Below, piece after piece: positions 19,250 to 48,141 of a DNA stretch of 64,000 nt (the stretch's first letter is position 1; every line of letters begins with the position of its first letter). The DNA comes from Hemileia vastatrix (taxonomy: Eukaryota > Basidiomycota > Pucciniomycetes > Pucciniales > Zaghouaniaceae), in the NCBI GenBank assembly GCA_030280995.1, contig JASXTE010000002.1, positions 2,778,001 through 2,842,000 of the forward strand. The letters are read 5' to 3'. Under the pieces are notes generated by a model. It saw nothing but the letters and a program-made list of their open reading frames with translations. It made no database searches and was not told where the DNA came from. A program made the position numbers and the translations under genes.

Positions 19250-19253
19250 TTTC

Positions 19254-24710: not shown

Positions 24711-25954
24711 ATGGTTGAATATTTGTTAACCTTGGAGAGGCCAGATAATTTTGATGATGATACTTGGGTGGCAATCAAGAAGAAGAGTCCTGGATTCTAT
24801 GTGTCAGGAAGTAGGTTGATGAGGAAGAGACATCCAAATCATCAAGTAGTGGTGACTCAGAAGAAGGGTCAAGAGTTGGTGTTGAAGTCTTTGCATGAAC
24901 ACCTTGGTCATAGAGGCTTTGGGGAGACTCATATAAGAGTAGAAGATAGATTTTGGTGGCCAGGTATGAAGTTGGCTGTTCAGGGTTGGGTTAAATCTTG
25001 TGAAGAATGTCAAAGAAGAAGTCACTTGAAACCTAAAGAGTTTCACTGTGATACTGGTGAATCAACTTTGTTTTAAATAGTAGGTTTGGATGCCTTCCAT
25101 ACTAAAGAGGGAAGGTATAAATACTTGATTGTTTCCAGGGATGATTTTTCTGGTTTGGTTGAGGAAGTCCCTCTGGTTAATTTGACTTCCAAAAATGTGG
25201 CAGAATTTTTGAATAAGGAATGGGTGTTTAGGTATGGGTTGATGAAGTTGGTGACTGTTGATGGTGGGTGAGAGTTTGAAGCTGAATTTAAAGAAGCTGT
25301 GGAAATTATTGGTTCTAAAGTTATAGTGGCTACAACTTATTATCCTGAAGCTGAAGTTATGGTTGAAAGAGGCCATCAAGCTATCAAGAATGCTTTGGTG
25401 AAGATGTGTGGAGATAGTGCTGAAAAGTGGAGGAATTATTTAAATTTGGTGCTATTTGCTGATAGGGTCACTATGAAAAGGACAACTGGTTATTAACCTT
25501 ATGAATTAATGTTTGGGAAGAAAGCTGTTCTACCAGTGGATTCGGAAGTTGTCTCTTAACTTGGAATTTATTGGGATGATGTGTGCTCAACAGAAGATTT
25601 TCTCTGTGCCAGGATGCAACAGTTGGAATGTAGAGAGGAATGTCAAGAGAAGGCATACTCTATAATGATGCAGATAAGAAATCAATTAGTCAGATACTGG
25701 GAAAAGAAGTTGGCTCATAGACTCAGGAATCCCTTGAAACCCGGTTGCTTGGTTTTGGTCTATAACAGAAGCTTGGAGAGTCAGTGGGGGAAAATGTTTG
25801 CTGACAGATGGAATGGACCTTATAGAGTCAGATATTAGGTTTCTGGAGGTTCTTATGTTTTGGAGGAGTTTGATGGTGCAGTCTTAAAGAAGAGAGTGGC
25901 TTCTCATCAGGTGAAGAGATTATACCCAAGAGGCAATAGAAGTGAGGAAGATTG
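24711..25954 (+). pseudogene. Integrase of element D
   Basis: The zinc-binding part shows HEHLGHRGFGETH, then WWPGMKLAVQGWVKSCEECQ (HHCC). The catalytic core has LDAFHTKEG (first Asp), LVTVDGG and then a stop where E reads TEF (second Asp present), and YYPEAEVMVERGHQAIKNA (Glu). The C-terminal part LVYNRSLESQWGKMFADRW and GGSYVLEEFDGA-like sequence ends near 25954. The same modules stand in order at 39915-41061 in element E. At least four stops. Confidence 0.87.
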
Positions 25955-26092
25955 ACTCCAGGATAAGGATAAACCATTGACCATTCTTTAAATTTTGGAT
26001 TTTGGTGATTCTGTGCATCTGTTTTGTTGAGAGCTTTTGTTTTTTTTGTTAGAATGTACCCATGGGTGGGGCTTCTAGATTTGATCTTGGAA

Positions 26093-26140
26093 AGTGTAGG
26101 GGTAACTGATGAGCTGGCTGCTCTGTAGAATGGTTACCCC
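26093..26140. repeat. Hairpin direct repeat, copy 1
   Basis: GGGGTAACTGATGAGCTGGC continues to GGTTACCCC. The ends pair (GGGGTAAC with GTTACCCC), and an inner GAGC...GCTC can pair too. An almost identical copy lies at 28911-28957, on the other side of antisense gene 2. Confidence 0.8.
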
Positions 26141-26520
26141 ATAATGTCTGTTTCAAGTTTCTGTTTGTCCTATTTGAATCCTAGTTCTGGTTTTTGCTAT
26201 CCAGGTTTCAAGTCCACTATGAATTTAAACTGGCTTACTGGCTTGGGACTGGCTTCTTTGATCTATTGGATTTGTGGTGGATCACTGGTGGTCTCCCATC
26301 ATTTTTACATATTGGGGGGAACCCACCCAGTGATCATTTACTTGGACTGGACTTTCTATGGAGCCAGACTTTTTCTTTTTCTTTCTTTGATTTTTGTGTC
26401 TATGGTTGTGTTAGATAGAAGTTTATGATTATTTTATTTTTTCTCTTTTTTCCTTTTAATTTTTATGGTGGTTATTAGGATGTAAAGAGGAGAAAAATTA
26501 CAAACTATATTATATGGTCT

Positions 26521-26860
26521 CACTACATCAGGGTCACCTGGATGTGGGAAAGCATTGGTGGAAAAAGGCTCATCAATTTGGCAGGCAATGCTTTTTAATT
26601 TTTTATCCTTATCTAATTTTATTATTATCTACTTTAATTTCTATTCATTTCATCTTATCTTTATTCATATTATTTTTCTAAATTTATTTTTCATCTCAAT
26701 TCATTTAAAAATTATTTAATGGTGTATCCACATCAAGGTGCACTTGGATGTGGGTAAGGTATCAGGGGATCATCTCATCAATTGGCTGGGGGATACCATT
26801 TGTAATTATTATTTAGTTAATCTTATTATTGTTCATTTCATTTTGATTTCACAGCTCTCA
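26521..26860. repeat. Imperfect tandem duplication
   Basis: Two units of about 200 and 140 bp, each opening with ACATCAGGGT- or ACATCAAGGT-like sequence and GGATGTGGG, then CATCAATT and a T-rich tail with TTCATTTC. Both are non-coding. Confidence 0.65.
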
Positions 26861-27279
26861 TATTGTTTGGGCAATTTTGTTTAATTATTTTCAAGTTTTT
26901 TTAGTATGTTAGTAGTTTAAGTAAAAATAAAAATAATACAAATTTATATATATATATCTGCTAATTACTATTGTTCTATCTTTTTAGTGATTTATTAATT
27001 TCTTTTTTTTATTTAATATCTTGAAGAAGAAGCCTCCAGTGGTTGGTTTGGATTACGGTGGCATTTTTTCTTTTTAATGGGATTGAAGGAAGAACTGTGT
27101 TCCTTGTGGTGTAAGTGTCTTGAAAGAGTATATGAATTGTAATGGTCAGGAACCGGATTGCAAGGTAATTTTTAGGTAGAAGTAGAAGAGGCTTGGAAAG
27201 AGTGTTGGAAGGTGTGCTTAATTATTCTAGATATCTTCCAGTGGTCATCCAGAAGTTGTTTCCTCAGATTATTCTACAA

Positions 27280-28678
27280 TTAATTCAATGGCCCATGAAG
27301 AGCAAAAACCTTAAGCATGTTTGAACACATCATACTTAGGTGTTGCTTCATATTGGTGTATTCCAGTGTTAATGTGGTTTCTAGAGGTTGGCCAACCCCA
27401 ATAGCAGTTTCAGGAGGCGGGGTTCCAACTAAACAGAAGAATTGGATCATTAATTGTTATCTGTTGAAGAAATTGGATTTATTAATTTGGTACTTACAGA
27501 TTGGAAGCTCATCAAATTTGTAAGTGGCCAGAATCTCAACTGTTGAAGGATTTTGAATGGATATAGTAGGAGGATCAAACAGATGGAGGTATGTATTTTT
27601 ATGGTCATCCTCTAGATGGTGTTGAGAATATGAACAAAAAGGAGGACGTTCCTGGGGCCTGGTTGGAGCAGCAGGTCTGCTGTTGTTGTTTTTGATATTG
27701 TTGCTTGGATCAGTTTGGTTGGTTACTGGTGGTGGAGTACCAGCTTGGTTGTAGGATGGTTCAGGAGAAGGTGACCTGAAAGCTGATTGGAATCTTCTGG
27801 ATGAAGATCTGGAAGAAATTGAGCTGTCAGATGAGTAATTGGATGTCAGAGGAGAGGTGTAGTTAACTCTTCTTTTTTGAGAGGGAGATTTGTGTCTGGG
27901 AGAAGTGTTTGATGCTCTCTTGTCTTCTTGACGTTCTCTGGCAGGTCTTCTAGAAGTTTTGGAATTTTTGGCATTTTTTGATGAAGAAATTGTTGTGCGC
28001 ATTGCTCTGGGAGAGCTAGGAGGTTGTTGTATGGAGTCGTTTGTGTTTACTGGTGTGATGTGACTGTTTTCTAATTGAATTTGGAGGTTTGGAGCCTGAT
28101 TTTTGCTTCCCAGTGAGGTGGGCGGGCCACCTGGAGCTGTCTAGCAGCCTGGGAGCTGGTTTGAAGCTGTTTTAGCTGAGTTTGCAGAGACAAATGCGGT
28201 TTCTTGAGATGATAAAGCAGGTATTTTGAAGACAGTTCTGGAGACAGAGCAGTGTGATCTTCTGGATGGAGCTGAAGATAGAGAAGAGGAAGCAGGACCT
28301 AGCTCTGGGGATTTAGTAGGAGATATAGAGATGTATTTTTGTGAAGGTGAAGGTGGTGGTATAGTATAATTGGGGTCTCTGTCAAATTTTTTCTTTTTTG
28401 GAGTTTCAAGAATCACAGGCTCGGTTGTAGAGTTTGGCTTCAAGATTTAGAAGACAAAAAGTGAAAGGTCTGCACATGTGGATGAAATGTTTGCAAGCAT
28501 AGTCCTTGGTTGAAGTGAGACAAGGAAGGTCTGATGGGTCAAAATCTAAAAATCCGGCTATTATCTTTGATAGGACAACAATGAAGAGAAAAGAGATAAA
28601 AGAAAAATTTTTATCAGTGATGGGTAGATGATGAAGAGAAAGTGGAAGCTCATTAGGGGGGTGCGGAGTATTTTGCAT
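27280..28678 (-). pseudogene. Antisense gene 2 of element D (spliced)
   Basis: A gene on the strand opposite to pol. From ATG 28678 an N-terminal segment contains PCLTSTKDYACKHFIHMC and RPFTF. A frame from 28443 to 27498 follows, rich in Ser, Pro and Arg (SPSPEPSYNQAGTPPP), with a single TAG at 28141-28143. A 69-nt intron at 27429-27497 (GTAAGTACC ... CTGTTTAG) joins in frame to a 49-codon last exon ending TAA at 27280. The join is phase 1, as in element E (38957-39017). How the 28678 frame joins the 28443 frame is unclear; a splice or shift is needed. No known domain is recognised. Length, composition and Cys cluster suggest a regulatory or nucleic-acid-binding protein, but that is only inference. 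Confidence 0.65.
27429..27497 (-). other. Intron in antisense gene 2 of element D
   Basis: Donor CT/GTAAGTACC and acceptor TTCTGTTTAG/TT on the minus strand, 69 nt. Without splicing the frame stops inside this stretch. With splicing it continues for 49 codons, split after the first base of a codon. Confidence 0.7.
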
Positions 28679-28712
28679 GGAATAGGCTCTTTCCTTTTAT
28701 GAAAAGTGTGGA

Positions 28713-29150
28713 AAGTCCATCAAGAATTTAAATTTAATACTGGTCAGTCCATCAAGACTTAAAACTGAAAAATGGTTTAGTACCCCAAGAGTATAAACTG
28801 AAGATGGTTTGATGGTTGAGTCCTTCAGGACTATAAACTGATAATGTGGTGTTGGTGTAATTCTGGCACAGGGTATCCAAAGGGGGAATCTATTAATTTA
28901 TTTAAGGCAAGTGTGGGGTAACTGATGAGCTGGCTGCTCTGTAGAACAGTTACCCCCGAATGTTAGTATATATTTTTGGCCCTTATTGGTTTGATCTCTG
29001 GTTCTTTTTTTATGATTTAAGTTTTGAGTCTTCCAAGACTATAAACTGAGGGTTTTTAGTCCCCAAGACTATAAAATAAGGGATGTCAGTCCCTTAAGAC
29101 TTAAAACTGAGGATGAGTCCTTCAAGACTTTAAACTGAGGAATTTTTTGA
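28713..29150. repeat. Eight mini-palindromic repeats upstream of antisense gene 2
   Basis: A unit near AGTCCTTCAAGACTATAAAC recurs about eight times. The first half is itself an inverted repeat (AGTCC...GGACT or AGTC...GACT), and TATAAACTGA follows. The second hairpin repeat (28911-28957) interrupts the array. It lies just upstream of the gene-2 ATG and may be its control region. Confidence 0.75.
28911..28957. repeat. Hairpin direct repeat, copy 2
   Basis: Matches 26093-26140 except for a few bases. Here the outer arms pair over ten bases (GGGGTAACTG with CAGTTACCCC), better than in copy 1. Confidence 0.8.
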
Positions 29151-29151
29151 T

Positions 29152-29494
29152 GGTTTTCTACATTCAGAAAGTCTGGAAAGTGGTCAAATTTTTTATTTTT
29201 TAGTCAAGAATTTCAGGCAAGAATCAATTACAGAAGAGAATCAAGAGATGAAAGAAAGTGTTGAGAATTAGTGTTGAACTGGTGGATGGGGTGTCTTCTT
29301 TTCTCAATTTCCTGCGGATCTTTAGCAGGAGTGAATTGGAAATAGTTTAGAATGAGTTTTTTTTGTTGAGAAGAGTATTGTTTTAATTTTTACTTGATGG
29401 TGGAAAATTGATTGTGTGGTGGTGTTTCAATGGTTCCCACGTTGTCATCATCACTGTCTGGATGGGAATGAACTGGTACTTCATCAGCTTAAAT
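29152..29494 (-). other. Region between the two antisense genes of D
   Basis: On the minus strand it holds the acidic possible exon (about 29408-29480) and a frame with AKDPQEIEKRRHPIHQF near 29260-29330. These may be later exons of antisense gene 1, but joins could not be fixed. Otherwise there is no feature. Confidence 0.35.
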
Positions 29495-29851
29495 TTAATT
29501 GTGGAGAAGTATAAGTTTTACCATCAGAAGACCGGGTTTGGTAGAGCTAGTGGTGGTAGTGGTGTTGGCACTCTTTTTGGAAGGGTTTAACTTCTTGATA
29601 AATATTGGTATCAAGATTGAAGGACTAGATCTTTTGGCTTTTCTGGAAGAAGGACCAAGTTGAGGGGTAGGTGAATCTTTTGCAGATGATAATGGACCAG
29701 GTCTGGAGCAAGATTTCTTTCTGGAATAGCAGGCATCACAAGCAGTTCTGTATGGATGAATTGGTGGTGTTATTATGCAGATGAGGTTATGTTCAATACT
29801 GTATTGACAGGGACCCCTTTCAGAGATTGATTTTGAAAAATGTGTGAACAT
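29495..29851 (-). pseudogene. Antisense gene 1 of element D, first exon
   Basis: Minus-strand frame from ATG 29851, which begins 50 bp inside the 3' LTR boundary. It contains ACDACYSRKKSC, a CX2CX6C motif with basic residues like the first half of a fungal Zn2Cys6 cluster, then a basic Ser/Pro-rich tract and a Thr run. The second Cys triplet of a true Zn2Cys6 domain is not present. The frame ends near 29495. A donor-like ATGGTAAAAC lies at 29515-29525, and an acidic HPDSDDDNVG stretch follows on the same strand near 29430-29480, possibly a second exon. The counterpart in E is 36955-38000. Confidence 0.5.
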
Positions 29852-29899
29852 GGTGGTTTTGGTGAAGGAGAATTTGGAAATTCTCAATTGGAGTGACGA

Positions 29900-30986
29900 T
29901 GTGGTCTTCCAAAATTGGCAGAGACCTTTTTTGGGCTATTTGGCGCTTTTTTGGTATTTCTTTATTGACATTGGTGGAAGAGTCGGGTGTTTTTCTAGTT
30001 TTATTAAGTGAATATTGGGACTATGGGTGTGAAATTACTACCATTTGATAGCCCCGGTTCCTCTCTATATTTTATGTCTTGATAAAATTTTTCATATTAT
30101 AAGTTTTAAGGGGTCATTTTCTCATTTTACATTTATAAAAGATAGCTGTTTAATTCTGTTTTTCGTGTTTTACAAGCTAACCTTAAGTCTTAGGGCTAAG
30201 TGCTTAGTACCATTAAGTAGAGCTAATTTTTCTCGATATTTTATGTTACAATGTTGTCATAGCTTAATTTTGTGTTTTAAGGGTTTTAGTACTCATGGTG
30301 GATTTTTCTAAGTATTTTGGGCTGTATTAGAGGTTTTTGGAGGTTTTATGGCTTCAGGGAGGTCTGGCCGCTTCTAGGCAGGAGGCCTTCCTGCCTCGGT
30401 TATAGAAGGTTGGGAAGCATTTCTAGAGTGTTTTTGTTCAATTTGGCTGTCAAAAGTGCCAAATTTGTTGCTGTGCATGGATTTTTTAGATGGTGGTCTG
30501 TGTGCACATACTGAATAAGACAGTTTGGGGAAACTTTAATTATCATACAACCATCCTGAGGTGATATCATTGTTTCTCACTCAGTTTACACTGTTTTTTG
30601 GCAAGAATTGGCTGTGTTTGTTGCAAGGTTAGTTCTTCATTTAGCTCAACTTTGGAAACTGATTTCTCTGATGTAGCTTTGCAACCTGCATCAAGTATTA
30701 TTGGTGTTGTCTGTGCAACAAGTGCACAGTGTTTTGTGTTTCTGATGTGAATCTTTCTGCATTTCAGATTTCTGGCTCTTTGTTTCTCAGTGGTCTCCTA
30801 CTGGCTACTGTCTTGACTTGTAAAGCAGTGAAGAAGTGTGTTGGAAGGGGTATAGTAACAGTCTCTAATTTGCTGTAGCAAATAAATCTCACCTGGTATT
30901 TTCTCAAAGGGACAGGGGTTTTATCCCCAGTTTTACTCCAACTCCCTTGGTCAAGGCCTATAGCTAGTACTATAGGATTGTCTACA
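29900..30986 (+). repeat. 3' LTR of element D
   Basis: 1087 bp, TGTGGTCTTCC to TTGTCTACA, matching 18164-19249 along its whole length. No clear polypurine run stands before it; the preceding 15 bases are mixed. Element H integrase sequence follows directly. Confidence 0.88.
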
Positions 30987-35523: not shown

Positions 35524-36225
35524 TGTAGAGAGTTCTAAAGTACTAAAAAGTAGACACAATGCAAGATGGGTTGGTTCTTCTTTTCAATTTCTGAAAAGAA
35601 GCTGCTGCAACTCTTATTTTAAAGACAGCACAATAATGTGTGATACTAGTATCTGACAAGATAGTTCATGAGTTGAGAGATGAGTTAAAAGATAAGAAAA
35701 ATAAATATTACTATCTTGATATTTCTATTCTTAATAAGCACTAATATTCACAGCTACTCCCTCTTTAAGTGCTCTCTCTGAATATGCCTTATTATAGCAA
35801 TAAAATAACTCTAATAATAGTTTATTCTACTGAATCTATATATTCCATCTGTGTTGCACTTTTTCACTAAAATATATGAAACACACACACAGATGCACAA
35901 ACTTTTTATCAGAATAATTACAAAATAGACAAAATCACTATATATCACAATATATTTCAAAATTATTTAATATAAAGCTCTAATGTTTGTAATCAAAATG
36001 AATGATCTCAATAATAATCTTTTACTTCCCTCTTCTCCCTACACTTATAATATAGCCTTTCCTTCTTATATTTTTCAGCACTCCAGACACAGTTCCCTAG
36101 TGGATCTCCAGTGCTTAATCTAGCACCACACTAGCAAAACACTAACTAATTCATTAGTAAACTAAATACACCGCTTGTAAAAACTACAGCGCCTAAACAT
36201 ACCCTAAGCCTACTATAATTAGTAT
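35524..36225 (-). repeat. 3' LTR of element E (part confirmed by its partner)
   Basis: Starts TGTAGAGAGTTC and follows 46034-46717 closely to TTAGTATT, where the partner is interrupted. The LTR probably continues right of 36225; its inner end cannot be fixed because no partner sequence is in the window. Confidence 0.85.
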
Positions 36226-36829
36226 TTACTTGTTTAACTCATTTTTCACATGCGCGCTTATGACTGTACCTTTACATTGGTTCAGTGCTACTTCTGGAAT
36301 TGTCACCTTTCAGCACTGATCATAGTCTCTTTGACTCTTGGTTAATTTTGTGATTGAGTCCCCATTGTCCTTGTTTCATTACTAAGTCCATAGTTATAAC
36401 AATTGACTTAGCTAGTTAGCCTCTGAAACTTACATTACCTATTTCAGTAAGTTACCACACTAGCCGTGGTGCAGTATACTATGTACTTGAGGCCTTCCTT
36501 GTGCCATAATTTCTTTGTTAAGGCATAAAAAAAAATTATTGTAAAATCCAAATCCATAATTTTCAGCGCTTGAACTCCTAGGTTTATAATTCCTTTATGC
36601 GGCACATCCCTCTTCAAAATCCATGCGCACAGACCCTGAATCCTCTTCTGCACTTCTCTATCCCTATGTTATTCTAAAACCATAATTACATATTTATAAA
36701 AGCGCTATCTTCTGCACTATGCTTCCCATTTGTTCTTCCTGGGATACGCAAGCTGATTGGTCTAAAAGACAAGTTACCTGCTTTGCGCGTACCACATCCT
36801 CCCTCTACTTGTGACAGTCCCCAGGAGCC
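36226..36829. other. Probable rest of the 3' LTR of E
   Basis: No coding motif on either strand. It lies between the confirmed LTR part and the TATA box of antisense gene 1, so the promoter of that gene may lie within the LTR or just inside it. Confidence 0.5.
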
Positions 36830-36837
36830 TATAAATA
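36830..36837 (+). promoter_or_regulatory. TATA box of antisense gene 1 in E
   Basis: TATAAATA, followed at 36858-36912 by a long C/T-rich run, a usual start region for fungal RNA polymerase II transcripts, and by ATG at 36955, 118 bp downstream. Confidence 0.65.
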
Positions 36838-36954
36838 CCCCGCTCCTTGAAGCATATTCTTCCTCCATCTTCCATCTTCTTCTATACCATCATCTTCCTC
36901 TTCTTCAACTTTTTTATACCTTTTTATGTTATCTTAACTATTGTTTTTGAAATA

Positions 36955-38000
36955 ATGAATACAAGGAATACCACAAATAATACGGAAAATACTGCCAACA
37001 TTGTGGACGCCAGTTGACAATTTGTACAAACGCAGACCCCTGCTGCTCCTCCCATGATGCCAGTCACTATGCTGTTGGGTAGGACAAGATGCACCCGCTG
37101 CATCAAAAATGGCATAAACTCCTACCACTTCTCAAAAGCCTGCTGTGGCAACACTTATTTTAACGTGAGTCTTCATTCCTTTTTCTATTATCCTATCATC
37201 ACTAACTTCAATATCTTTCATCCATTTAGTTGTAAAATTTCTGCAAAAGTTTCAAGAAGAAGTGTAGCTATGATGGACCACCCACCATTGCAAGTCTAAA
37301 CCCAGACACTTCCGCCTCAGATATGATGAGTCTAATGACCATCAAATGTCCTTTTCCCAAACAAGCTACTCCTCCAGCCAACAAATGTGACAGGTTTAAT
37401 TTCCAAGCGCCTACTCCTAGTAGTGTTGCTTCCATTCATAGATCGCTTTTTTCAGAAAAGAGTATTCATACTGTAAGTTTCTTTTTTATTTTCTTTCTCT
37501 CCTAACCTAAAACTAATACTATTCTTTCTTTCTTAGGATGCACCAGCCACTACATATGCTGAGACGCCTTCAAAACTGAAAAATTCTCTTCTCCTTCCTG
37601 GTTTGGAAGAAAATCCTGCCTGGGATGCCGCTGCTCCTCCAGAATGCATTCCTTGACCCACAACACTCCTAATTGAGCTTGTATGCACCCAACCCTTAAT
37701 TTCTTTGTCCTGGATGATTGGCTTACTAATTTCCCTTTGCTTGATGACAAAGAAGAGCCGGCCATGGCTTGGAACTTGAAATTTGCAGAGAAAATTGCCT
37801 GCACACCATTTTATGAGACCATGCATTGAATGAATGATATTTTCACTGCCGTCAAGGAATTTCTTGTTGCAGTCCGCGTCTATACTTGCGCTGAGTATAA
37901 CCAACAAACTCAACTCATAACCACCTTGCAATGAAAGATACAAGAAGCTTTTAATGACTGGGCTTTCTACGTCCCAATCTTTGATGTTTCAGAATACTAA
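36955..38000 (+). pseudogene. Antisense gene 1 of element E
   Basis: A plus-strand gene relic inside a minus-strand element. Exon 1 from ATG 36955 has one TGA and the Cys motif RTRCTRCIKNGINS, the counterpart of ACDACYSRKKSC in D with the third Cys changed to Ser. A GTGAGT donor stands at 37165 and an acceptor at 37229, but the join gives an immediate stop, so this exon end has decayed. Exon 2 (to 37472) ends SIHT. A 64-nt intron (37473-37536) joins in frame to DAPATTYAETPSK. The last part, after a shift, reads LDDWLTNFPLLDDKEEPAMA and AVKEFLVAVRVYTCAEYNQQ, ending at a stop near 37998. No domain is recognised. The Cys motif hints at metal binding. Confidence 0.6.
37473..37536 (+). other. Intron in antisense gene 1 of E
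   Basis: GTAAGTTTC to TTTCTTAG, 64 nt, with CTAACC as a fitting branch site 30 bases before the acceptor. Both flanking frames are open and join in phase 0. Confidence 0.7.
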
Positions 38001-38458
38001 AAAAAACTTTTATTTTTAATATTATTTATTGTGTACATAGCCTGTAAAAGTAATAAACATTTTTTCTCTTTTTTTTATATATTTGCATTTAAATTTCCTG
38101 TGTGAGCCCTACATGATGAGTTTCCCCCCAAAAAAAATTCTCCTTCTTCCAAACTTGCCAGCACACCCTTTTTTACTAAGTGTCTCTGAAAGATGAAACA
38201 GCAGAAAAAAACAAAAAAACTTAAGAGCAGCACTACTCCCTATAGCAGCAAATTCATCCTCTGCATAATATACACATGAGTTCCCTTGAAATTTTCAGAT
38301 CTTCGCAATATGAATTTCCCATGACTGTGACATATTCTACTTTTGCCTTGGGTTCCTATTTTTATGACGAGAATAATTCACATGTTCCTTAGAGACTTTT
38401 CAGTGCTCAAGTCAGACATTGCGCAACTGACGCCTTTTCTATTTTTCCATTCTTAGCT

Positions 38459-38466
38459 TATAAATA
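38459..38466 (+). promoter_or_regulatory. TATA box of antisense gene 2 in E
   Basis: TATAAATA, 38 bp before the ATG at 38504. It is the same octamer as at 36830, after an untranslated gap of about 460 bp behind gene 1. Confidence 0.6.
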
Positions 38467-38503
38467 GCTTATCTAACAATCAACATTTCAATTATCTTAG
38501 TAT

Positions 38504-39316
38504 ATGACTCAATACTGCACGGTTCCCAGAGATTAAGCGTGCTCTTTCTGCAAACATTGTGATTTCCATTTCACCTTTTCTAGACCTGGGGGGTATTCCT
38601 CCTTTAGACCTGCATGGGATAATTGTTTCAGATATAATAAGACTTTTAACTCCTCCATAAATCAAAATAATCCTCAGCCTACTGGCTACATTTGTTTCCA
38701 TCCCAGCTCCACCAGTAGTGCTCCTATAATAACCCCACTATTCCTACCAGCATTAATTCTTCTCCCATTACTGATGTGCCTTACAAATCATCATCACTTC
38801 CTGCTTGTTTCAGGCGCAAAATTTCCATTCAGCTTAGCGCTGCGCCTTCCCCTGCCCCAAGCTCCAATGCTTCTATGCATTTAGGTGCCACTACAGCTGC
38901 TCCAGATGCCTTTACTGTCTCCTTGCGGTCAGCATTCCCCAATAACTTATTGGAAAGTAAGTTCCTTTCATTATACTTACACCTACATTACCTACTGACT
39001 CCTGTTCTATCTTGTAGGCTTCAGCGAATCCATCTCCCTGGGATGGGTTCCTATTCCACTACCTTTTGTACATTCAATGCAAATGTTTTCCAGAATTTAC
39101 CTTATATATGAGGCTATGTGTCTATCATTTAATCATAAACAAGCCTTTTTTGATGCTAATCTCAAAGCTTTTTACACCCATGTAGAAATGATAGGTCAGC
39201 TAGTGAATGAGATCAGTTCTTTGACTATTCTTGGATTCCTTGCCAATCCTTGTTGCTTTGTCATACCTAAAGAATGGAAAAGATTTCCTAATAGTTTTAA
39301 CAACAAAAATAAATAA
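38504..39316 (+). pseudogene. Antisense gene 2 of element E (spliced)
   Basis: From ATG 38504 the frame reads a Cys cluster, ACSFCKHCDFHFTF, after one stop, comparable to ACKHFIHMCRPFTF in D gene 2. A frameshift near 38720-38760 leads to a Ser/Pro/Ala-rich middle (LSAAPSPAPSSNASM). A 61-nt intron at 38957-39017 (GTAAGTTCC ... CTTGTAG) joins in phase 1 to a 99-codon last exon with SISLGWVPIPLP and KQAFFDANLKAFYTHVEMIG, stop at 39314-39316. Intron phase, order of regions and convergent orientation to pol are the same as in D. The function is unknown. Confidence 0.65.
38957..39017 (+). other. Intron in antisense gene 2 of E
   Basis: GTAAGTTCC ... TATCTTGTAG, with CTACTGAC as a likely branch site. 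It joins two open frames that otherwise lie in different phases (codon starts 1 and 2 modulo 3). The split falls after the first base of a codon, as in D. Confidence 0.72.
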
Positions 39317-39914
39317 CCCACTAGTGCTTTTTTCCAAAATCTCTGTACATAGTCACTATTTCTGTTATTCCTTTAAATAAAAATCCTAGAAACAGTGCTA
39401 TTTTTTTACACCTGTCTTCAGTATTAGTTGTCCTTTAAAATTTGGAGTGCCTAACATCTCTCCCTCTAATTTCTTTAAAAGACTATAGACCCTGTAAAAA
39501 ATCATAAAATAAACTTTAAACATTAAAGCTTTACCACCTTTACTGCAATAAAAAAATACATGATGTAAATAAGTTATTGAACTGTAGCATGCCCCATCTA
39601 TAAATTGTTATTCCACTCCTGGTTGATTAACCCATCAGCTAAATTCCCAGTTTCTTTTGCGTTCACATGGTACACATCTCCTTCAATCTATTTACCCATT
39701 TTGGAATGTATCCTCAAACAATGAAAATATAAGATTTGGTTTTCTCTATGCCCTCATCTGAGCGCTTATTCCAGTTGCCTGTTCAGTCATTGTCCTTCTA
39801 ACTTTCAGTTAGCGCCCTTTACCTGTCACAAATGTGTCAAAGCCTCCTTTAATTCCTCTTAGAAAAATAAACCTTAAACATAAATATTTAGTTTACTCTC
39901 TTCATAGAGGTTAT
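39317..39914. other. Convergent intergenic region of element E
   Basis: About 600 bp between the stop of antisense gene 2 and the end of pol. AT-rich, no repeat or frame of note. The hairpin repeat found in D is not seen here. Confidence 0.6.
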
Positions 39915-41061
39915 TCTGGTAGTTTTTTGTCATTCCAGAGGTTATTCTGAACTACTGGAGAACTCCTTGGGTAGAATCTTTTGATCTGATCTTCCGCTAC
40001 TCGCAGCTTCAATTCTGCACCATACAATTCCTCCAGTAAATAAGACCCTCCAGTTATTTGCTTCCGTTTCTATAAGGACCATTCCATCTTTCAGCAAACA
40101 TTTTACCCCATTGGCTTTCTAGACTTCTATTATAGACCAAAATCAAATCTCCTGGGTACAATGACTTCCTCAATCTATACGCTAAGTGCTCATCCCAATA
40201 TTTAACTGATTTGTCCCGGATCTGAATCACTCTATCATATGCCTTCTCCATGAACTCATCTTTCCTTTCAAGTTGTGCCACCCTTGCTAAAATTAAATCT
40301 TCAGTCAAGCGCACTTGATCCCAATCACATTCTAGAAACGATCCAGCCTCTAGATCAATAGGTAGTAGCGCTCTTTGACCAAACATAATTTCATACGGTG
40401 AAAACCCAGAAGTTCTTTTAACTGAAATCTTATTTGCAAACAAAACTAATGGAAAATAGTTGTTCCACTTTGCACCATTATTTCCACATAACTTAACAAG
40501 CACATCCTTTATAGCTTGATACTCTCTTTCTATCATTCTTTCTGCTTCAGGATAATATGGTGTTGAAACTTGTAGCTTAGAGCCTATATCTTTTACTACA
40601 TCTTGGAGTTCTCCAGCAAATTCAGTGCCTCCATCCACAGTTACCATTTTCATTACCCCATACCTATAAATCCATTCTCTCTTTAAGAATTCAGCTACAT
40701 TACTTGCCTTAAGGTTTACCAAAGGCACCGCCTTGACCCATCCTGATAGATTGTCCCTGGATACTACCAAGTATTTAAAGTGTCCTTCTTTTATATGAAC
40801 TTCATCTAAACTGATCCTACCAAAAATTGTATCTTGACCCGTCACTCTACCTTTCTCTTTCAGCTTCCTGTAACTCCTGCACTGACATTCCAGACAAGAT
40901 TTAACCCAATCCCTTACCTTGTTCTTCATATTGGGCCACCAAAATTTTTCCCTTACTCTGAAATACATCTCATCCTGAACTCTATGACCTAAATTCTCAT
41001 GCAACTCCCTGAGTATTTTCTCCATCCTTTCCCTAGTTTGAATGACTAAATGAGGAGCCAA
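39915..41061 (-). pseudogene. Integrase of element E
   Basis: The frame 41061-40054 is open for 335 codons. The zinc-binding part is HENLGHRVQDEMYF to WVKSCLECQ (HHCC). The catalytic residues are D in SLDEVHIKEG, D in VTVDGGTEF and E in EAERMIEREYQ. GFSPYEIMFGQRALLPID follows and then LVYNRSLESQWGKMFAERWN. After a frameshift near 40050 the last part (GGSYLLEELYGAELKLRVAE) runs to a stop near 39915. All three catalytic acids are kept. Confidence 0.88.
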
Positions 41062-42453
41062 AGACTGATTCCTCTATAGCTTTCCATTTTTAATAAAATA
41101 ACTTTTAGCCCGCTTATTGATATTGTGCCAAACCTTTTCATCAAAAAAATCTGGTTGACCACTACCTTCCAAATACAACCTTAGCAATTCTGCTTCCTGA
41201 TCAGCAGGTGCATCATATTTGAAATACTATCCATTATCTGAGTGAGTATTACTATCTTGACTTTTCCTTGAGTTGTCTTTGTCATCTGACTCTTCCACTG
41301 TCTCGTCTAGCACACTCCTTGTTGCTACATTAACTTCAGCATTCTCTAAATCCAGTTGCAGACTACCTTTGCTAAAAACATCCTTTGTGTCATAATTACC
41401 TATTTTATTGTCTTCGGGGACTTCCCATAACATTACTGGTTTATCGTCTTTGCGGAGGCCTTTATCAAATACTTCATAACAATAATCTATCCCGCTTACC
41501 CATCTTTTATCTTCTTTGAATTCCTCAGCTTCCAAGTCTTTTCACACAATGGCCTTCTGGATAACAAATCTGGCATCCTGAAGGACTTCCCTTGCTTATG
41601 CACTAAGTCAAAAGAAAAAAAATTAATCTGCGCCACCCACCTAGTCATGGTTGCATCTGGTAAACTCAGGCTACTAATCATTTGAACCAACAATAGCGCA
41701 TCAAACTTCAACTCAAAATGTTGCCCCCAAAGCATCCACTGTAGCTTCTTAAGTATTCTCTCTACTCCACATAACTCCAGCTTAGACTGAGAGTACCTAG
41801 ACTCCACTTTAGTAAAAGTCTTAGATTCGTAAAGGAGAGGTCTTTCATTACCTTCCTCATCCTCCTGCATCAAAACTGTGCTTACTGCAGACAAACTAGA
41901 ATCCACCGCTAGAGTAATTTTCCCAGAGCCTGGCCAATATTCCAATCATTTCAAAAGGATATCTTTTCTTACAATCCCTTTTAATAACTCAAATGACTCT
42001 TCACATTCCTCTGTCCAATCCCATGCAAAATCTTTCCTAGTTAAGTGCCTTAAAGGTGAAGACAGCAAATCAAAATCTTAAATAAACATTCTTACATATG
42101 TACAGATGCCTAAATACCCTCTAACTTCTGTAGTATTTCTTGGTCTCAGCCATGCAAGCACCTTATTCTTCTGCTTTTCAGAACTGTTCCTCCCTTCCTT
42201 ACATACTACATTTCCCACTATATCAAGTGCTGGAACAAAACAAGCAAATTTGGAACCTGAGATTGTTAATCCTAACTCCTCTATCCTAAATAGCACTCTC
42301 CAAGGTAATCACATATTCTCAAACAAACCTTCTAATATACGGATTCTCCTCTAACACTTCCCCATCATGATCACTGGCTGGTCCTTTTATACCGCCATCA
42401 TCAATAAAAATTCCCACATTCTCTGAAATTTTGTCTGACAGTATCCACATCAT
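41062..42453 (-). pseudogene. RT C-terminus and RNase H of element E
   Basis: The RT box FIDDGGIKGP lies at about 42384-42415, then 42296-42078 with ELGLTISGSKFACFVPALDI and the connection. RNase H at 41945-41496 has ITLAVDSSLSAVSTVLMQED and ends RMPDLLSRRP. A further acidic linker lies at 41535-41227. Several shifts. Confidence 0.82.
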
Positions 42454-43242
42454 CTATGCTTGGTGTACCACCACAGAATTTGTTGTGCCTTGTGGTAACC
42501 ATTTCAACCTAAAACGTCCCAGTGGCATTTCAAAGGTAGTCATGGTCCTGGATAATTCATCCAATTCATGCTCATTATATTCTCCCATGATATCACCAAA
42601 TCCATAAAATGTGCACCCAGCAAATGAATCTAAAAACTCTTCTGGCGTTGTTGGCATTCCTGCATCTTTTACTGTAACCTTGTTCATCTCCCTAAGATCA
42701 TGAACAACCCTCAGTTTACCACAGTGCTTAACAACACAAAACACTGGACTTGAATAACTAGACATAGACTGTTCATACAAGCCAGACCTTAACTTTTCTC
42801 TAATTAATTCTTTATACTCTTCTCTTATAGCTGCTGGTATTAGAAAAGCCTTCTTCTGCCATGGTGCATGAGGTATAACTGGAACAATATAAGTTTTACC
42901 ATAAGAGTGTTTCAACAAACCTCTTTTCTCTTCAGAAAACACAATAGACTTCTCCCTAAGAACCATAACATGTAACAACAACTTCTTTTCTTCCTGAGAT
43001 AACCAATCCTCTGGTCCAAAATTAACCATCTGAAGCCTTTCCATCTTGATTCTACTATTAAGTGGAAATTTAGGCAGAAACTTTGTTAAAGGACTATAAT
43101 AAAGATTCCTAGACAGTTTCAGCCTCTGCAAAGGAGGATTCAAATCTGTAATTGGTACATTTACTGGTTTAACCTTGAAAGCTACTGGTTTATACTTTGA
43201 TGCAAAACAGCACTTGATGCCTCCTTCATTTCTTAAAATCAA
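42454..43242 (-). pseudogene. Reverse transcriptase, N-terminal part, of element E
   Basis: A 262-codon open piece with VNFGPEDWLSQEEKKLLLHV, IPAAIREEYKELIREKLRSG, SSYSSPVFCVVKHCGKLRVV and FEMPLGRFRLKWLPQG, in step with D at 22621-23400. It ends at a stop just before the catalytic box, which is in the next frame. Confidence 0.88.
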
Positions 43243-43670
43243 ACCCTTTCAAATATAACTACAGGTTTTACCTAAATCCTGTTTTTTCCTTTTCTTTTTA
43301 ATATAAGTATAACAAAATACATAATCAAAGAAGTCAAAAAGCCTAGGTATTATACATTCTATAGTAGTATTACCAAGACACCTATGAAGTACCACTTTAT
43401 GTATCCCCTCTTGTTGGACTGACTGGTCACTCTCTGGGTTCCTCTCATTCTGGGAGATAGTAACACCTAAAATGCCAGCCCCTGATGAAAATTTTGGTGC
43501 CTTCCTGGTGGTTTCCCCATATCATCCTCTGAGACTTACTTATAAATCTCTCTTTCTTTCTCCAATCTTTCAGCTCCAGAGTACTTACTTTCCCAGCCAC
43601 CATCATTAGGTGCTACTAAGACTGCTGTTACTAGAATACCATCATCACCAATAATCCTTATTCCAATAGT

Positions 43671-44012
43671 CTAATTCAAAAAATAATCAATAGTTGCAGA
43701 ATAATAAATTAAAAATGGTGTGCCTAAAACTGGTTTAACTACACCCATTGGAACATAAAGATGATTATCTCTGGTTGCTCCTGCAACTCTAGTGCGTACA
43801 TACTCTGCTACACCTATAACAGGCAACCTACCTCCACCAATTCCTGCGACAGTGCCATCAACATCTTTTACAGGAAGACCTAGCTCTACGGCATCATCCA
43901 CTGAAAACACATTGATTTGTGAACCTGTATCCACTAATGCTCTAATCTGCTTACCATTTACAGTAATTGTCAAATACCCTAAGGGACCTGCAAAATGTGG
44001 CACCCTAGGCAA
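43671..44012 (-). pseudogene. Protease of element E
   Basis: GPLGYLTITVNGKQIRALVD, then TGSQINVFS: the retropepsin DTG active site is intact, followed by the IGGG stretch and VLGTPFLI. It matches the protease of D and of the gag at 60859. The region 43243-43670 between it and RT has only broken frames. Confidence 0.85.
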
Positions 44013-44030
44013 TCCAATGACTGTCTGTAA

Positions 44031-45725
44031 TTACTGCTCTCCAACATCAAACTCAGCGCAATCAGCAATCCTTTTCTTCCTACACTTATCCACAATTACA
44101 TTCACTACATCTGGCGCTACTACCATCAGCATCCCCAATGGAGCTGAAACCATAGTTTTTAAACACTGCGCAACTAATTCCTCAGCTGACTTAGAAAAAT
44201 CAGAGTGAACTTGGAACTGCATTTTCCATTTAGGTTGTGTTGCCTTTGCACCAGCCTTTGCTCTTCCAGGTGGGTTCTTTGGAGTATTATGCCTTGCTCC
44301 TGGCATTCCTTAAGCAGGTACCACCCTTTTTCTGTACTACTTCTGGCTTCTCCACAATCACAGGTTGTGCTTCTCCTTGATGATCCACACCATACCCATC
44401 AGGTTCCATACCTTCCATATTAACATCTTCCATAGACGCAGGTGTATTTTCTCTAGTAGTATTCCCTACTTCCTCCATATCCTCTGCATTCACATACCTA
44501 GCACCAGCTCTTTTTGGCCCACTAATTGTTGGTGGGGCCATTTTCTTGTGTTTTGCTGAAAACATCTCCAGATGCGCTGCAGTAAGTGGAACTGTAACTT
44601 CTCCATCTTTTACTTTAAAATTTAACACTGCAAAAGTAACTACAAAATTAACTGACTTCGCATCGTTTCCTTTCTCTTTTTTTTCAGGCTTTTTGCCCTT
44701 GCTTGACTTGCCTTCCATAGATTTCTTATTAATATAATCAATGACCATGGCTCACATCCCTCCATCCTTGTCTTTAACAATCTTAGTCCCATTTTCCAAC
44801 ATTAGCGTGAATCCATCATTGTAAACTACCCTCTCCACCTTATCCTTTTGAAGCGCATTACAACTCATCCTAATATGCCCTTCTTTATTACAATAGTAAC
44901 ATACCATTGTAGAAAAGCGCAATGGTTGGGAAGAACTCTTAAGCCTAAACACCTCCTTTGCCTTCACTTCTTCTGTTGTTTTCTTCTCCAATTTTTCAAT
45001 CCTTGCCATAACAGAATCTGGCTGCTCTTTAGTTAAAATTTTGGCTTTAGGGGACAACACCTGAGGAGACAATCAAAAATCAGACGCATCCTCATCCATT
45101 CCCTTATTATTCAAAGCGACTCTAACTGCGCAGCACTCAGCTCAACACAACTTCATTTCAGCTTCCACCGCTGTCTCTACTTTCTATAATCTAGGGTACT
45201 TATAACTACTGTCCCTCTTCTTGACTAATTTCCCTTCATTATCCAAGTTCCTCTTTTCCCAGTCTTTAACTTCTGGTGCTAACGCTTCACAAAACCAAGG
45301 TAAAGATGCATTATTATCACTATATTCATCATTACTGATCAAATACCCAACCATTTGATAAACTCTTCCCTGAAATATTTAAATTCTTTAGGGTCCCAAA
45401 CATCCCCTCCAGCTTTGGCCTTCTTAACCAAGACATCTAGACCCTTAACTGTGTACCTAGTTTCCTCAGTAATCTTTGTCCATCACTTAAGTATCTGTTC
45501 CTTTAGCACTGACCAATCATGTTCTTTGTCACCCTTTAGATCCTCCAGATGGTCCTTGCACTCATTTGGTACAAAGAACGATACTTGGGGCACCATATCA
45601 TATTCTGTTGCTCCATGAACTTCAGCAGCTTCTTCAAAGCTATGTAAGAACTTCTTGGTATTAATTACCACAAAACGCAACCTTTCATATTTACACCTGA
45701 TAATAGTAGTTACCCTCTGTGGCAA
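44031..45725 (-). pseudogene. Gag of element E
   Basis: Pieces at 45725-45483, 45072-44752, 44748-44287 and 44306-44031 on the minus strand in order. The second piece has CYYCNKEGHIRMSC, a perfect CX2CX4HX4C knuckle, followed by FTLMLENGTKIVKDKDGG. Downstream is an acidic/Pro-rich linker. The N-terminal capsid part is fragmentary (HDWSVLKEQ). Multiple frames on the plus strand here are shadows. Confidence 0.75.
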
Positions 45726-46033
45726 AGATGCTGATTTATTGGGAAATTTAACTCTCTCCTGAAATCCCCTAGATTAGTCACAGTAGGTTACATCTTTGAA
45801 ATAAAGAATTGAAACAAAATTCAAAAATAAACACACATTTGATAATTTAAGCCATCTATATCCACGATACAGTCCTAAACTATCCTTTGATTACAGATAT
45901 TGATCCACTTGTTGTGAACCCTATTACTTTTCCACTGAAGCTCCGGCTTGATTAGGCCTACTTGACAAAACCCTGAAAACAAACAATCTAATCAAAACAC
46001 TAGTTACAATTATGCCACTGTTGGAAAACCAAT
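45726..46033 (-). other. Leader and primer site of element E
   Basis: No gene. Next to the LTR the minus strand reads TGGTTTTCCAACAGTGGC (46031-46014), a possible primer-binding site two bases from the LTR end. Confidence 0.55.
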
Positions 46034-46717
46034 TATAGAGAGTTCTAAAGTACTAAGAAGTAGACACAATGTGAGATGGGTTGGTTCTTCTTTTCAATTT
46101 CTAGAAAGAAGCTCCTTCCACTCTTATTTTAAAGACAGCGCAATAATGTGTAATATTAGTATCTGACTAGATAGTTTATGAGTTGAGAGATGAGTTAAAA
46201 GATAAGGAAAAATAAATATTACTATCTGGATATTTCTATTCTTAATAAGCGCTAATATCCACAGCTACTCCCTCTTGAATTGCTCTCCCTGAAAATGCCT
46301 TATTATAGCAACAAAATAACTAATAATGGTTTATCCTACTCTGTGTTGCGCTTTTTCACTAAAATATGTGAAATACACACACAGACACACAAAATTTTTA
46401 TCAAAATAATCACAAAATAGACAAAATTGCTATATATCACAATATATTTCAAAAGTATATAATATGAAGCTCTAATTTTTGTAATCAAAATGACTGATCT
46501 CAATAATACTCTTTTTCCTCCCTCTTCTCCCTACTCCTATAAGATAGCCTTTCCATCTTAAATTTTTCAGCGCTCCAGACAAATCTCCCTAGTGGATCTC
46601 CAGTTCTGATTCTAGTATCACATTGGCAAAACACTAACTAATTCATTAGTAAACAAAAGACACTGCTTGTAACAACTACAGCGCCTAAACGTACCCTAAG
46701 CCTACTAAAACTAGTAT
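46034..46717 (-). repeat. 5' LTR of element E, cut by element B
   Basis: Begins TATAGAGAGTTC (TG changed to TA) and follows 35524-36225. At 46718 it is broken by the TGTCAGCC start of element B; the rest of this LTR should lie beyond the window. Confidence 0.88.
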
Positions 46718-48141
46718 TGTCAGCCTGTATATCCCCAAGACTGAGTAAAAAGCACTTATAAGCTATGTTAAACACACGGAGTATACATGGGAGCAATAAA
46801 TTAGAGTACACAAATAGTATACATAAGTAAATTTATGATAATATACAAAATATGCCATTATAACAACTTATATACATGCATATATCCACTTTTTATAAGT
46901 CTTATGTACTTAATATTAAGTTGAAATATGTTAGGGTAAATTTAAGAACCTTAAATATCAGGCTAAATAATTTTTAAGTAGACTTAAAGCTGTTGTTTTC
47001 ATTGTTTTATGTAAAAAACAAGAAATGCACTCTAAATCACTTAAAAGTTGATTATATGTGCTATAAATTTAATAATATTAAAAATGTGCTTAAACAGATA
47101 AATTTGGATTAATTGGGACTATTTATTTGGCTACTCAAATGCATAAAAATAACACTTTTCCACTTTTGTGTTTTTTATGTCAGAAATGGCTTCTGTGTAC
47201 TGGCCACATACTGCCTGCATTTTTCCTGAGTGAATAGCTTCAATTTTAGAAAATTTAGCTTTTTCACACTATAATTACCCCACATTCTACGCCCACTTTG
47301 GGGAAAAACACTAAAATAGGCAACAGGCGCTTATTTAGTGTCCTAGCTTAATTATAAATGCATTGACCATCTTTATATGCACTAATTACATTAATAACCT
47401 CAATCTTGGCGCTTTAATTCACTACCATGCTTAAACTTTTCTAGATTAGTCAAGGATTTATCCATTTAAGCACCTGCCAAGGACTGCATGTAGTTACCCC
47501 ACATCTCATGCCTTTTTTTTGGGTTTTTAAGTGGTTTCTCAGTCGATTCTGGTTATTTTTGAATGGGGATTTCACATAGTATAATGTCATGATTAGCCCC
47601 AAAATTTCTACGGTTATTCCTCCTTATTATTAAGTAATAATTAGTCTTAATTTTCTCTTTTTAGTTATTTATTTTTATGTATAATACACATATACTCTCT
47701 TTTTTACTTATTCTTTATTTTTGATGGATTATCCCTATTACTACAGGATTTTGGTGAGTGATATCATTCTAATTATGTTACTGGTCACTCTTTTTGTTGC
47801 TTTATATTTCTATTAGCTGGAATGAGGTGTCAGTAACTTTTTATAGTGCAGTTAAATCAGTGGGCTCATTGGGGAGGTAATTGTGTATTAAAGGAGGGGG
47901 TTTTTGGTCTTGTTTTCTGCATTCTTTGTCATTACAATTAAAAATATAACCAATACAATTACAATACATATCAATAGTAATTATAAAAGTCTTTGAATAG
48001 TATCTGAATTTATTAAATCTATTTCTCTACCAACTATAAAATTGTAAGCCATATATAATTAGTGAGATTAAAATTACTGGGACCCTTATATTGAGTTATA
48101 TTTTAATACTTATTGGATTTGTACTACAGTATTCATATAGG
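46718..48141 (+). repeat. 5' LTR of element B, left part
   Basis: TGTCAGCCTGTATATCCCC at the start, AT-rich. It is interrupted at 48142 by the Copia element; ATAGG at 48137-48141 is the duplicated target. No frames of note. Confidence 0.75.

What the first reader, a model, noticed from the sequence alone, without database searches (positions are those of the whole stretch)
36830..39316. Two antisense, TATA-driven, intron-containing genes inside Ty3 element E
Seen: on the strand opposite to gag-pol, between the end of integrase and the 3' LTR, there are two ordered gene relics (36955-38000 and 38504-39316). Each is preceded by TATAAATA (36830 and 38459) and has introns with good donors, acceptors and branch sites. 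At 38957-39017 and 37473-37536 the splices join open frames exactly. Known: antisense ORFs in this position occur in a few plant Ty3 elements, but they are not part of the standard set. Inference: the clade carries a pair of accessory genes with their own promoters.
Basis: partly seen in the sequence, partly recalled or inferred. Interest (0 to 1): 0.88.

Follow-up and report, generated by a model that had tools for sequence, protein, structure and literature searches.

The report
Antisense gene pair in fungal retrotransposon
An abundant Ty3-type jumping element in what looks like a rust fungus carries, on its back strand, two real intron-containing genes that show signs of selection, each coding for a cysteine-rich protein that resembles fungal DNA-binding zinc clusters.

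Summary
Opposite gag-pol, between integrase and 3' LTR of element E, lie two spliced gene relics (36955-38000, three exons; 38504-39316, two exons). The host looks like a rust fungus, not a plant. A strict scan finds three mini-introns here against 0.07 per shuffle (0 of 400). The 747.6-Mb host genome gave 1,086 first-look candidates for part of gene 2. In 39 fetched copies, starts, acceptors and TATA boxes are mostly kept and gene 1 indels avoid exons. Shared variants favour codon position 3 (171/125/217, p=4e-6) while singletons do not; the nonsynonymous ratio (0.54) matches integrase (0.55), though two noncoding controls also dip. Both proteins show six-cysteine arrays near Zn2Cys6 spacing; Pfam stays below cut-off. 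Sister element D has a conserved antisense intron and frame. Best reading: antisense, probably DNA-binding accessory proteins that regulate the element. Expression and function are untested. Antisense accessory genes are known in plants and Botrytis; a spliced, zinc-cluster-like pair is a new variant.

The parts
35526..36226 (-). 3' LTR of element E (element lies on the - strand)
   Evidence: self-alignment with 46036-46718, 88%; 64 mismatches in 682 aligned bases
46036..46718 (-). 5' LTR of element E
40054..41061 (-). integrase part of pol (335 aa open)
   Evidence: 36 homologues at E <= 0.001; 5 of the 6 named by organism are Puccinia or Austropuccinia; most carry Pfam PF00665
36830..36837 (+). 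TATAAATA upstream of antisense gene 1
   Evidence: exact in 28 of 36 copies, 2 of 284 flank windows as conserved
36955..37164 (+). antisense gene 1, exon 1 (first three cysteines of the array)
   Evidence: ATG in 24 of 33 copies; no majority stop; 13 of 32 sequences open over the whole exon
37165..37229 (+). gene 1 intron 1
   Evidence: GTRAGT in 25 of 38, CTAAC in 27 of 37, TAG in 33 of 37 copies; indels 30.0 per kb
37230..37472 (+). gene 1 exon 2 (last three cysteines of the array)
   Evidence: 11 of 39 copies open over the whole exon; indels 3.2 per kb
37473..37536 (+). gene 1 intron 2
   Evidence: GTAAGT in 17 and GTAAGC in 8 of 37, TAG in 35 of 37 copies; indels 20.7 per kb
37537..38000 (+). 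gene 1 exon 3 and stop
   Evidence: shared variants 52/22/51 by codon position, N/S ratio 0.39; 4 of 39 copies open over the whole exon; stop begins TAA in at least 26 of 30 copies
38032..38040 (+). TGTACATAG 32 nt after the gene 1 stop, possible 3'-end signal
   Evidence: 5 in window against 0.35 expected; exact in 21 of 36 copies, not above flanks
38459..38466 (+). TATAAATA upstream of antisense gene 2
   Evidence: exact in 29 of 38 copies; not distinctive against flanks
38504..38956 (+). antisense gene 2, exon 1 (151 codons in most copies; six-cysteine array, then S/P-rich linker)
   Evidence: ATG in 37 of 38 copies; 28 of 38 copies share one exon length; array counts; 2,890 first-look candidates genome-wide, 150 scored
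38957..39017 (+). gene 2 intron
   Evidence: GTAAGT in 26 of 39, TAG in 39 of 39 copies; implied length 61, 60, 53 or 45 in 29 pairs of exon hits
39018..39316 (+). gene 2 exon 2 and stop
   Evidence: shared variants 22/9/28 by codon position; stop TAA in 35 of 39 copies; 1,580 first-look candidates, 150 scored
39344..39352 (+). TGTACATAG 28 nt after the gene 2 stop
   Evidence: exact in 26 of 38 copies, not above flanks
27280..28446 (-). sister element D: antisense frame with an intron at 27429-27497; one common stop lies inside the drawn upstream exon, and the stop at 27280 is the window's alone
   Evidence: 8 loci, window included: 3 common stops in this frame against 22 and 17 in the others; GTAAGT and the TTA before the final G in 8 of 8
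29495..29887 (-). sister element D: antisense exon with a C-x2-C-x6-C stretch like gene 1 exon 2
   Evidence: Pfam Zn_clus 14.5 bits, E 0.04, cut-off 21; 7 of 500 shuffles match gene 1 exon 2 as well, one of eight comparisons; conservation in copies not tested

Best explanation
Element E belongs to an abundant Ty3 family of a rust-like fungus whose region between integrase and 3' LTR carries two antisense, spliced, protein-coding genes. Shown at DNA level: structure, recurrence in copies, and constraint of protein type. Inferred: each is transcribed from its own TATA promoter; its introns survive because they are introns only on the antisense RNA, so the genomic RNA that is reverse transcribed is not spliced there; each protein carries an N-terminal binuclear zinc-cluster-like DNA-binding array, a serine/proline-rich linker and a C-terminal domain, enters the nucleus and regulates the element (LTR or antisense promoter) or guides its DNA.
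For: Three introns against 0.07 per shuffle. Starts, acceptors, TATA boxes mostly kept in copies. Indels avoid gene 1 exons. Shared variants 171/125/217 by codon position (p=4e-6) against flat singletons 376/339/357; N/S ratio 0.54, integrase 0.55, shifted + frames 0.84 and 0.95. No majority stop in the gene frames. The implied gene 2 intron is 61, 60, 53 or 45 nt in 29 pairs picked by eye, all remainders modulo 3, while both exons stay aligned as protein. Six-cysteine arrays (window counted): gene 2 C-x2-C-x6-C-x14-C-x2-C-x6-C, cysteine in 31, 24, 35, 29, 35 and 34 of 39; gene 1 C-x2-C-x7-C-x14-C-x2-C-x6-C, 31/38, 29/38, 24/34, 27/38, 15/37 and 35/39. Zn_clus E 0.0034 for one copy. Sister element D has an antisense frame with a conserved intron.
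Against: No RNA evidence. Zn_clus never reaches its cut-off in what was scanned; its best match lays the second half of the profile on the first half of the array; the 14-residue loop is longer than the usual 5-12 (recalled); other columns also hold recurrent cysteines, so the choice of six is mine. The pol-strand frame sharing the third positions scores as well on N/S (0.53). Noncoding controls are not all clean: 36240-36820 is phased (ratios 0.69, 0.38, 0.57) and one frame of 39360-39960 gives 0.50 (p=0.006); the integrase codon positions alone are only at p=0.08; gene 2 as a whole is not significant on N/S (0.75, p=0.19) and its exon 1 shows no codon bias (all). Gene 1 is open over all exons in 0 of 30 sequences and gene 2 in 1 of 39. 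No CGG/CCG pair lies in either E LTR. D shows no third-position bias (24/43/38).
Confidence: 0.6

Rival explanations
1. The antisense genes code for proteins, but these act in another step: nuclear entry of the element's DNA, RNA binding, or tethering of integration to chromatin; the cysteines are structural.
For: Protein constraint is indicated without any function; Zn_clus is below its cut-off. The plant review discusses nuclear roles for such proteins (PMC7264820, sections 5, 7 and 8 read).
Against: Six-cysteine spacing in both proteins is near that of DNA-binding zinc clusters.
Confidence: 0.25
2. The product that matters is the antisense RNA (dsRNA and silencing of the element), and the open frames matter little.
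For: Antisense retroelement RNAs without coding role exist; PMC7264820 section 8 lists them.
Against: Indels and shared variants follow exons and codon positions; starts, acceptors and the gene 2 stop are mostly kept.
Confidence: 0.06
3. A host gene pair captured as a passenger, now only decaying.
For: Both genes have introns and promoter-like boxes; the fetched copies are worn.
Against: 1,086 to 2,890 first-look candidates and N/S as low as integrase suggest selection after capture.
Confidence: 0.06
4. The open frames belong to the pol strand (for example the 151-aa frame at 37533-37988).
For: That frame is longer than chance (1 of 500); N/S cannot separate the strands (0.53 against 0.54).
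Against: The order position 2 < 1 < 3 appears only in the proposed + frames; introns of varying, non-triplet length interrupt a pol-strand reading; the strict intron pattern occurs only on + in this region.
Confidence: 0.02
5. Chance: a C/T-rich strand with few stops and splice-like words.
For: The + strand is G-poor, which lengthens frames; the longest single frame is ordinary (40 of 500).
Against: 0 of 400 shuffles give three introns; conservation, indel and codon signals in 39 copies.
Confidence: 0.01

Closest known systems
Antisense accessory genes (aORF-3R) of plant Ty3 elements: Grande gene23, RIRE2, Retand
   Same: antisense, between pol and 3' LTR, kept in most copies; Grande gene23 has its own promoter and a nuclear protein (PMC7264820, sections 5, 7 and 8 read)
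   Different: here two genes in tandem, with introns, and zinc-cluster-like arrays; no Transposase_28 match listed in Pfam scans
brtn of Boty-like elements in Botrytis cinerea
   Same: antisense extra gene in a fungal LTR element (Zhao et al. 2011, not read; seen as citations in PMC7264820 and PMC8365987)
   Different: one gene, ascomycete host; the brtn sequence was not at hand, so homology was not tested
Fungal Zn(2)-Cys(6) (GAL4-type) binuclear cluster proteins
   Same: six cysteines, C-x2-C-x6-C twice in gene 2
   Different: loop of 14 residues; Pfam score below cut-off; no other domain of such proteins found

Membership tests
Ty3-type LTR retrotransposon | paired LTRs and an integrase of the Ty3 kind | tested here: met
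   LTR pair; integrase homologues with PF00665/PF17921; no tree was built
Antisense accessory gene of an LTR element (aORF-3R) | lies between pol and 3' LTR on the opposite strand | tested here: met
Antisense accessory gene of an LTR element (aORF-3R) | present in most copies with conservation like other element proteins | tested here: inconclusive
   39 copies, N/S ratio 0.54 against 0.55 for integrase; the copies were found with gene 2 DNA, so the share of elements lacking the region was not measured
Antisense accessory gene of an LTR element (aORF-3R) | transcribed from its own promoter | not testable with these tools
   TATA boxes exact in 28 of 36 and 29 of 38 copies; no RNA data
Zn(2)-Cys(6) zinc cluster | six cysteines C-x2-C-x6-C-x5-12-C-x2-C-x6-8-C (pattern recalled) | tested here: inconclusive
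   spacing met except the loop (14) and, in gene 1, one x7; the fifth gene 1 cysteine in 15 of 37 only
Zn(2)-Cys(6) zinc cluster | Pfam PF00172 at or above its curated cut-off | tested here: not met
   best 17.9 bits against 21, E 0.0034, one of three gene 2 exons scanned alone; 1 of 11 gene 1 exon 2 sequences at E 0.028
Retand-type TRP28 protein | Transposase_28 domain | tested here: not met
   no match listed in Pfam scans
Boty brtn | sequence homology to brtn | not tested
   no brtn sequence available

The most novel reading that the evidence does not exclude
Two abundant Ty3 families of a rust-like fungus carry antisense, spliced genes for zinc-cluster-type transcription regulators, so that thousands of element copies have put self-encoded DNA-binding regulators and their target sites across the genome, a retroelement equivalent of retroviral regulatory genes with possible reach into host gene control.
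Probability: 0.35. Interest if true: 0.8.

Novelty: new variant of a known kind. Interest (0 to 1): 0.62.

Why it matters
Antisense accessory genes of LTR elements are known in plants, but what their proteins do is not. A spliced pair with a zinc-cluster-like array in a fungal family with over a thousand first-look candidates gives the question a testable form: does a retroelement encode its own transcription regulator on its back strand? It would also explain how introns persist in an element that copies itself through RNA, and it warns that gene predictors may count such genes as host transcription factors in large, repeat-rich fungal genomes.

Tried and rejected
Protein searches with a gene 1 piece and with a D antisense frame found no homologue; short pieces and the length filter make this weak. 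Viral and genome collections gave no relative of the integrase. PDB profiles of gene 2 exon 2, gene 1 exon 3 and gene 2 exon 1 gave nothing up to E 10. DNA-level paralogy of genes 1 and 2 is not established: whole-gene score reached by 7 of 100 shuffles; by segment 111, 4, 53, 162 and 94 of 200, only the N segment low. Protein similarity of their middle pieces is weak (5 of 500, one of 16 comparisons). Codon-composition scoring put the proposed frame first among + frames in 7 of 8 pieces (in one of these a pol-strand frame scored higher; gene 2's first piece failed). With a null that selects open frames the sum is 23.5 against 15.0 +- 3.8, and the highest of 60 shuffles exceeds it (24.8). My note and one search's first reading said 8 of 9; that was a miscount. 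A search for CGG/CCG pairs in the E LTRs was empty. Ten paper searches listed, by title and start of abstract, nothing describing this; three papers were opened.
Full report
Element and host. Element E runs from 35526 to 46718 with LTRs of about 700 bases (88% alike; 64 mismatches in 682 aligned bases) and lies on the - strand. Its integrase (40054-41061) has 36 homologues; 5 of the 6 named by organism come from Puccinia or Austropuccinia, and the sixth is in a Xanthomonas assembly. The window lies in an unnamed assembly of 747.6 Mb in 791 contigs. I infer a rust-like fungus with a large, repeat-rich genome; the species was not tested.

The observation. On the + strand, opposite gag-pol, the stretch 36227-39966 holds more open frame than dinucleotide shuffles give (sum of the five longest 533 aa against 395, 2 of 500; six frames of 80 aa or more, 1 of 500), although the longest alone is ordinary (40 of 500). 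The pol strand is enriched as strongly (longest 151 aa, 1 of 500; sum of five 461 aa, 0 of 500). A strict scan for mini-introns (GTRAGT, CTRAY branch, YAG, 48-81 nt) finds three here, at 37165-37229, 37473-37536 and 38957-39017, against a shuffle mean of 0.07 (0 of 400 reach three). The whole window on both strands holds seven. The 9-mer TGTACATAG stands 32 and 28 nt after the two stops; the window holds five against 0.35 expected. Two of the five lie in LTRs. A 3'-end signal is possible, but the word was picked after the fact.

Copies. Gene 2 DNA (38776-39316) gave 1,086 first-look candidates in the genome, of which 40 were scored, at 84-100% identity, the window included. The 39 others were fetched with about 5.1 kb each and aligned to the window. 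They were chosen by similarity to gene 2, which biases indel counts in 38776-39316 but not codon positions. Sites kept, of the copies with sequence there: TATA boxes 28 of 36 and 29 of 38; ATG 24 of 33 and 37 of 38; donors GTRAGT 25 of 38, GTAAGT 17 of 37 (GTAAGC in 8 more) and 26 of 39; acceptors TAG 33 of 37, 35 of 37 and 39 of 39; gene 1 stop beginning TAA in at least 26 of 30; gene 2 stop TAA 35 of 39. Against their surroundings the first TATA box (2 of 284 windows as conserved) and the splice cores taken together (68 of 5,000 random draws, mostly through the acceptors) stand out, and the second ATG somewhat (26 of 294). The second TATA box (49 of 284), the first ATG (80 of 294), both 9-mers (59 and 64 of 282) and the gene 2 stop (77 of 294) do not.

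Constraint. Indels per kb of copy: gene 1 exons 5.9, 3.2 and 4.7; introns 1 and 2 30.0 and 20.7; spacer 16.4; gene 2 exons 2.8 and 0.8 with intron 0.0 (inside or near the query, so biased); downstream 9.7; 3' LTR-proximal stretch 12.5; integrase 7.4. Variants carried by four or more sequences fall 171/125/217 on codon positions 1/2/3 of the proposed frames (p=4e-6), while singletons fall 376/339/357 (p=0.38). The nonsynonymous to synonymous ratio of shared over singleton variants is 0.54 (p=3e-7), as in the true integrase frame (0.55, p=1e-4; there codon positions alone give 91/102/123, p=0.08). The two shifted + frames give 0.84 and 0.95. Taken alone, gene 1 is clear (0.46, p=9e-8). Gene 2 is weaker (0.75, p=0.19; positions 51/34/59, p=0.03), its second exon being the clear part (22/9/28; ratio 0.50) while its first exon shows nothing (12/11/12 and 17/14/19). 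The three pol-strand frames give 0.69, 0.53 and 0.85, so this ratio cannot choose the strand; only the proposed + frames have the order position 2 < 1 < 3. Noncoding controls: 38045-38450 shows no phase (p=0.26 to 0.54; ratios 0.76 to 0.90); 39360-39960 shows no phase (p=0.26 to 0.37) but one frame has ratio 0.50 (p=0.006); 36240-36820 is phased (p=0.0008 to 0.004; ratios 0.69, 0.38, 0.57) without an open frame, which I cannot explain (all; frames). The codon test therefore supports, but does not alone prove, selection; with the indel map and splice sites the case is strong.

Frames. The other + frames contain stops shared by most copies; in the gene frames no stop is shared by more than 13 of the 37-39 copies compared. 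The stops of the window copy are carried by a minority of other copies or by none. Counting codons aligned to the window, 3 of 37 sequences have no stop in gene 1, 13 of 40 none in two pieces of gene 2, and 2 of 40 none in integrase. With indels counted, 0 of 30 sequences are open over all three gene 1 exons and 1 of 39 over gene 2 (window included): the fetched copies are worn. Protein searches of the genome scored gene 2 exon 2 at 150 of 1,580 first-look candidates, about 100 of them without a stop by my count of the listing, and gene 2 exon 1 at 150 of 2,890, about 55 without a stop; such listings favour intact frames. For 29 places where I matched both exons by eye, not all that could be matched, the implied intron is 61 nt (20), 60 (4), 53 (3) or 45 (2), that is, all remainders modulo 3. 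That is what splicing predicts and what a read-through frame would not allow.

Proteins. Counting the window with the copies, gene 2 exon 1 shows C-x2-C-x6-C-x14-C-x2-C-x6-C, with cysteine in 31, 24, 35, 29, 35 and 34 of 39 sequences. Gene 1 shows C-x2-C-x7-C-x14-C-x2-C-x6-C across its first intron (31/38, 29/38, 24/34, 27/38, 15/37, 35/39). Several other columns hold cysteine in up to 18 sequences, so the choice of six is mine. The usual Zn2Cys6 pattern has a loop of 5-12 (recalled). Pfam Zn_clus gives 17.9 bits (E 0.0034) for one of three gene 2 exons scanned alone, laying the second half of the profile on the first half of the array; E 0.028 for one of 11 gene 1 exon 2 sequences; and 14.5 bits for the D exon. 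The cut-off is 21. Serine/proline-rich linkers and C-terminal domains follow, which gave only sub-threshold Pfam matches and nothing in the PDB. Membership in the zinc-cluster family is therefore not claimed, while a zinc-cluster-like mode of action is the favoured inference. No CGG/CCG pair lies in either E LTR, so a classical GAL4-type site is not evident there.

The sister element. Element D (18164-30984, LTRs 88%) shares two pol stretches with E at 66-67% DNA identity and gave 3,955 first-look candidates for one antisense frame, 40 scored. Eight held loci, the window included, keep one antisense frame with three common stops (one of them inside the exon as I drew it, one inside the intron) against 22 and 17 in the other two, and an intron (27429-27497) with GTAAGT, and the TTA before the final G, in 8 of 8. 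The window's own stop at 27280 is absent from the 7 others. Indels are 4.2 and 2.9 per kb in the two exons, 2.1 in the intron and 10-11 in the flanks; shared variants do not favour third positions (24/43/38). An exon near its 3' LTR has a C-x2-C-x6-C stretch like gene 1 exon 2 (7 of 500 shuffles as similar); its conservation lies outside the held loci and was not tested. D has no TATAAATA on its antisense strand.

What is known. A plant review (PMC7264820; [quoted passage not shown] PMC8365987 (passages) cites Zhao et al. 2011 on brtn, which I did not read. PMC11963269 (abstract and one passage) finds TRP28 in 97% of Retand clusters. Ten paper searches listed no description, by title and start of abstract, of such genes in rust fungi or of zinc-cluster arrays in antisense element genes; the library is only open-licence papers. 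I therefore file this as a new variant of a known kind.

How it may work. Shown: antisense position, splicing signals recurring in copies, constraint of protein type. Inferred: own promoters fire on the inserted DNA; the antisense mRNA is spliced, and the genomic RNA is not, since the introns are introns on one strand only; the proteins return to the nucleus and bind the element's DNA, tuning LTR transcription or the fate of new DNA. Why two genes are kept is open: related arrays suggest partners or paralogues, but DNA similarity between them is not above chance as a whole.

Noticed in passing
18164-30984: Element D, sister of E on the + strand, has its own antisense region on the - strand with a conserved intron; 3,955 first-look candidates genome-wide.
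   Followed up: partly
35526-46718: Element E is unusually rich in GCGC (31 of its 96 CpG; 2.6 per kb in 39 copies against 0.10 in 8 D loci); in copies these sites are often GTGC or GCAC. Cause unknown, possibly a binding motif.
   Followed up: partly
36240-36820: Shared variants between 3' LTR and gene 1 are phased by three (84/97/130 in one frame, ratio 0.38) although no frame is open there.
   Followed up: partly
37533-37988: A 151-aa frame on the pol strand overlaps gene 1 exon 3; 1 of 500 shuffles reaches its length. Probably a shadow of the antisense codons.
   Followed up: partly
1-64000: CpG is strongly depleted (observed/expected 0.16; 0.09 inside element D), as in a methylated or RIP-like genome.
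   Followed up: no
14817-14825, 60283-60291: TGTACATAG also sits inside LTRs of D-like elements, in the same sequence surroundings in both.
   Followed up: no
40054-41061 (homologue P0008): A rust-type integrase 65% like E's is filed under Xanthomonas sp. A2111 on a 21.9-kb contig, perhaps fungal contamination of a bacterial assembly; it was not found in genome contigs.
   Followed up: partly
57-9347: Another LTR element with LTRs 94% alike and pol on the - strand; only about 1.1 kb lies between its long pol frame and the LTR.
   Followed up: no
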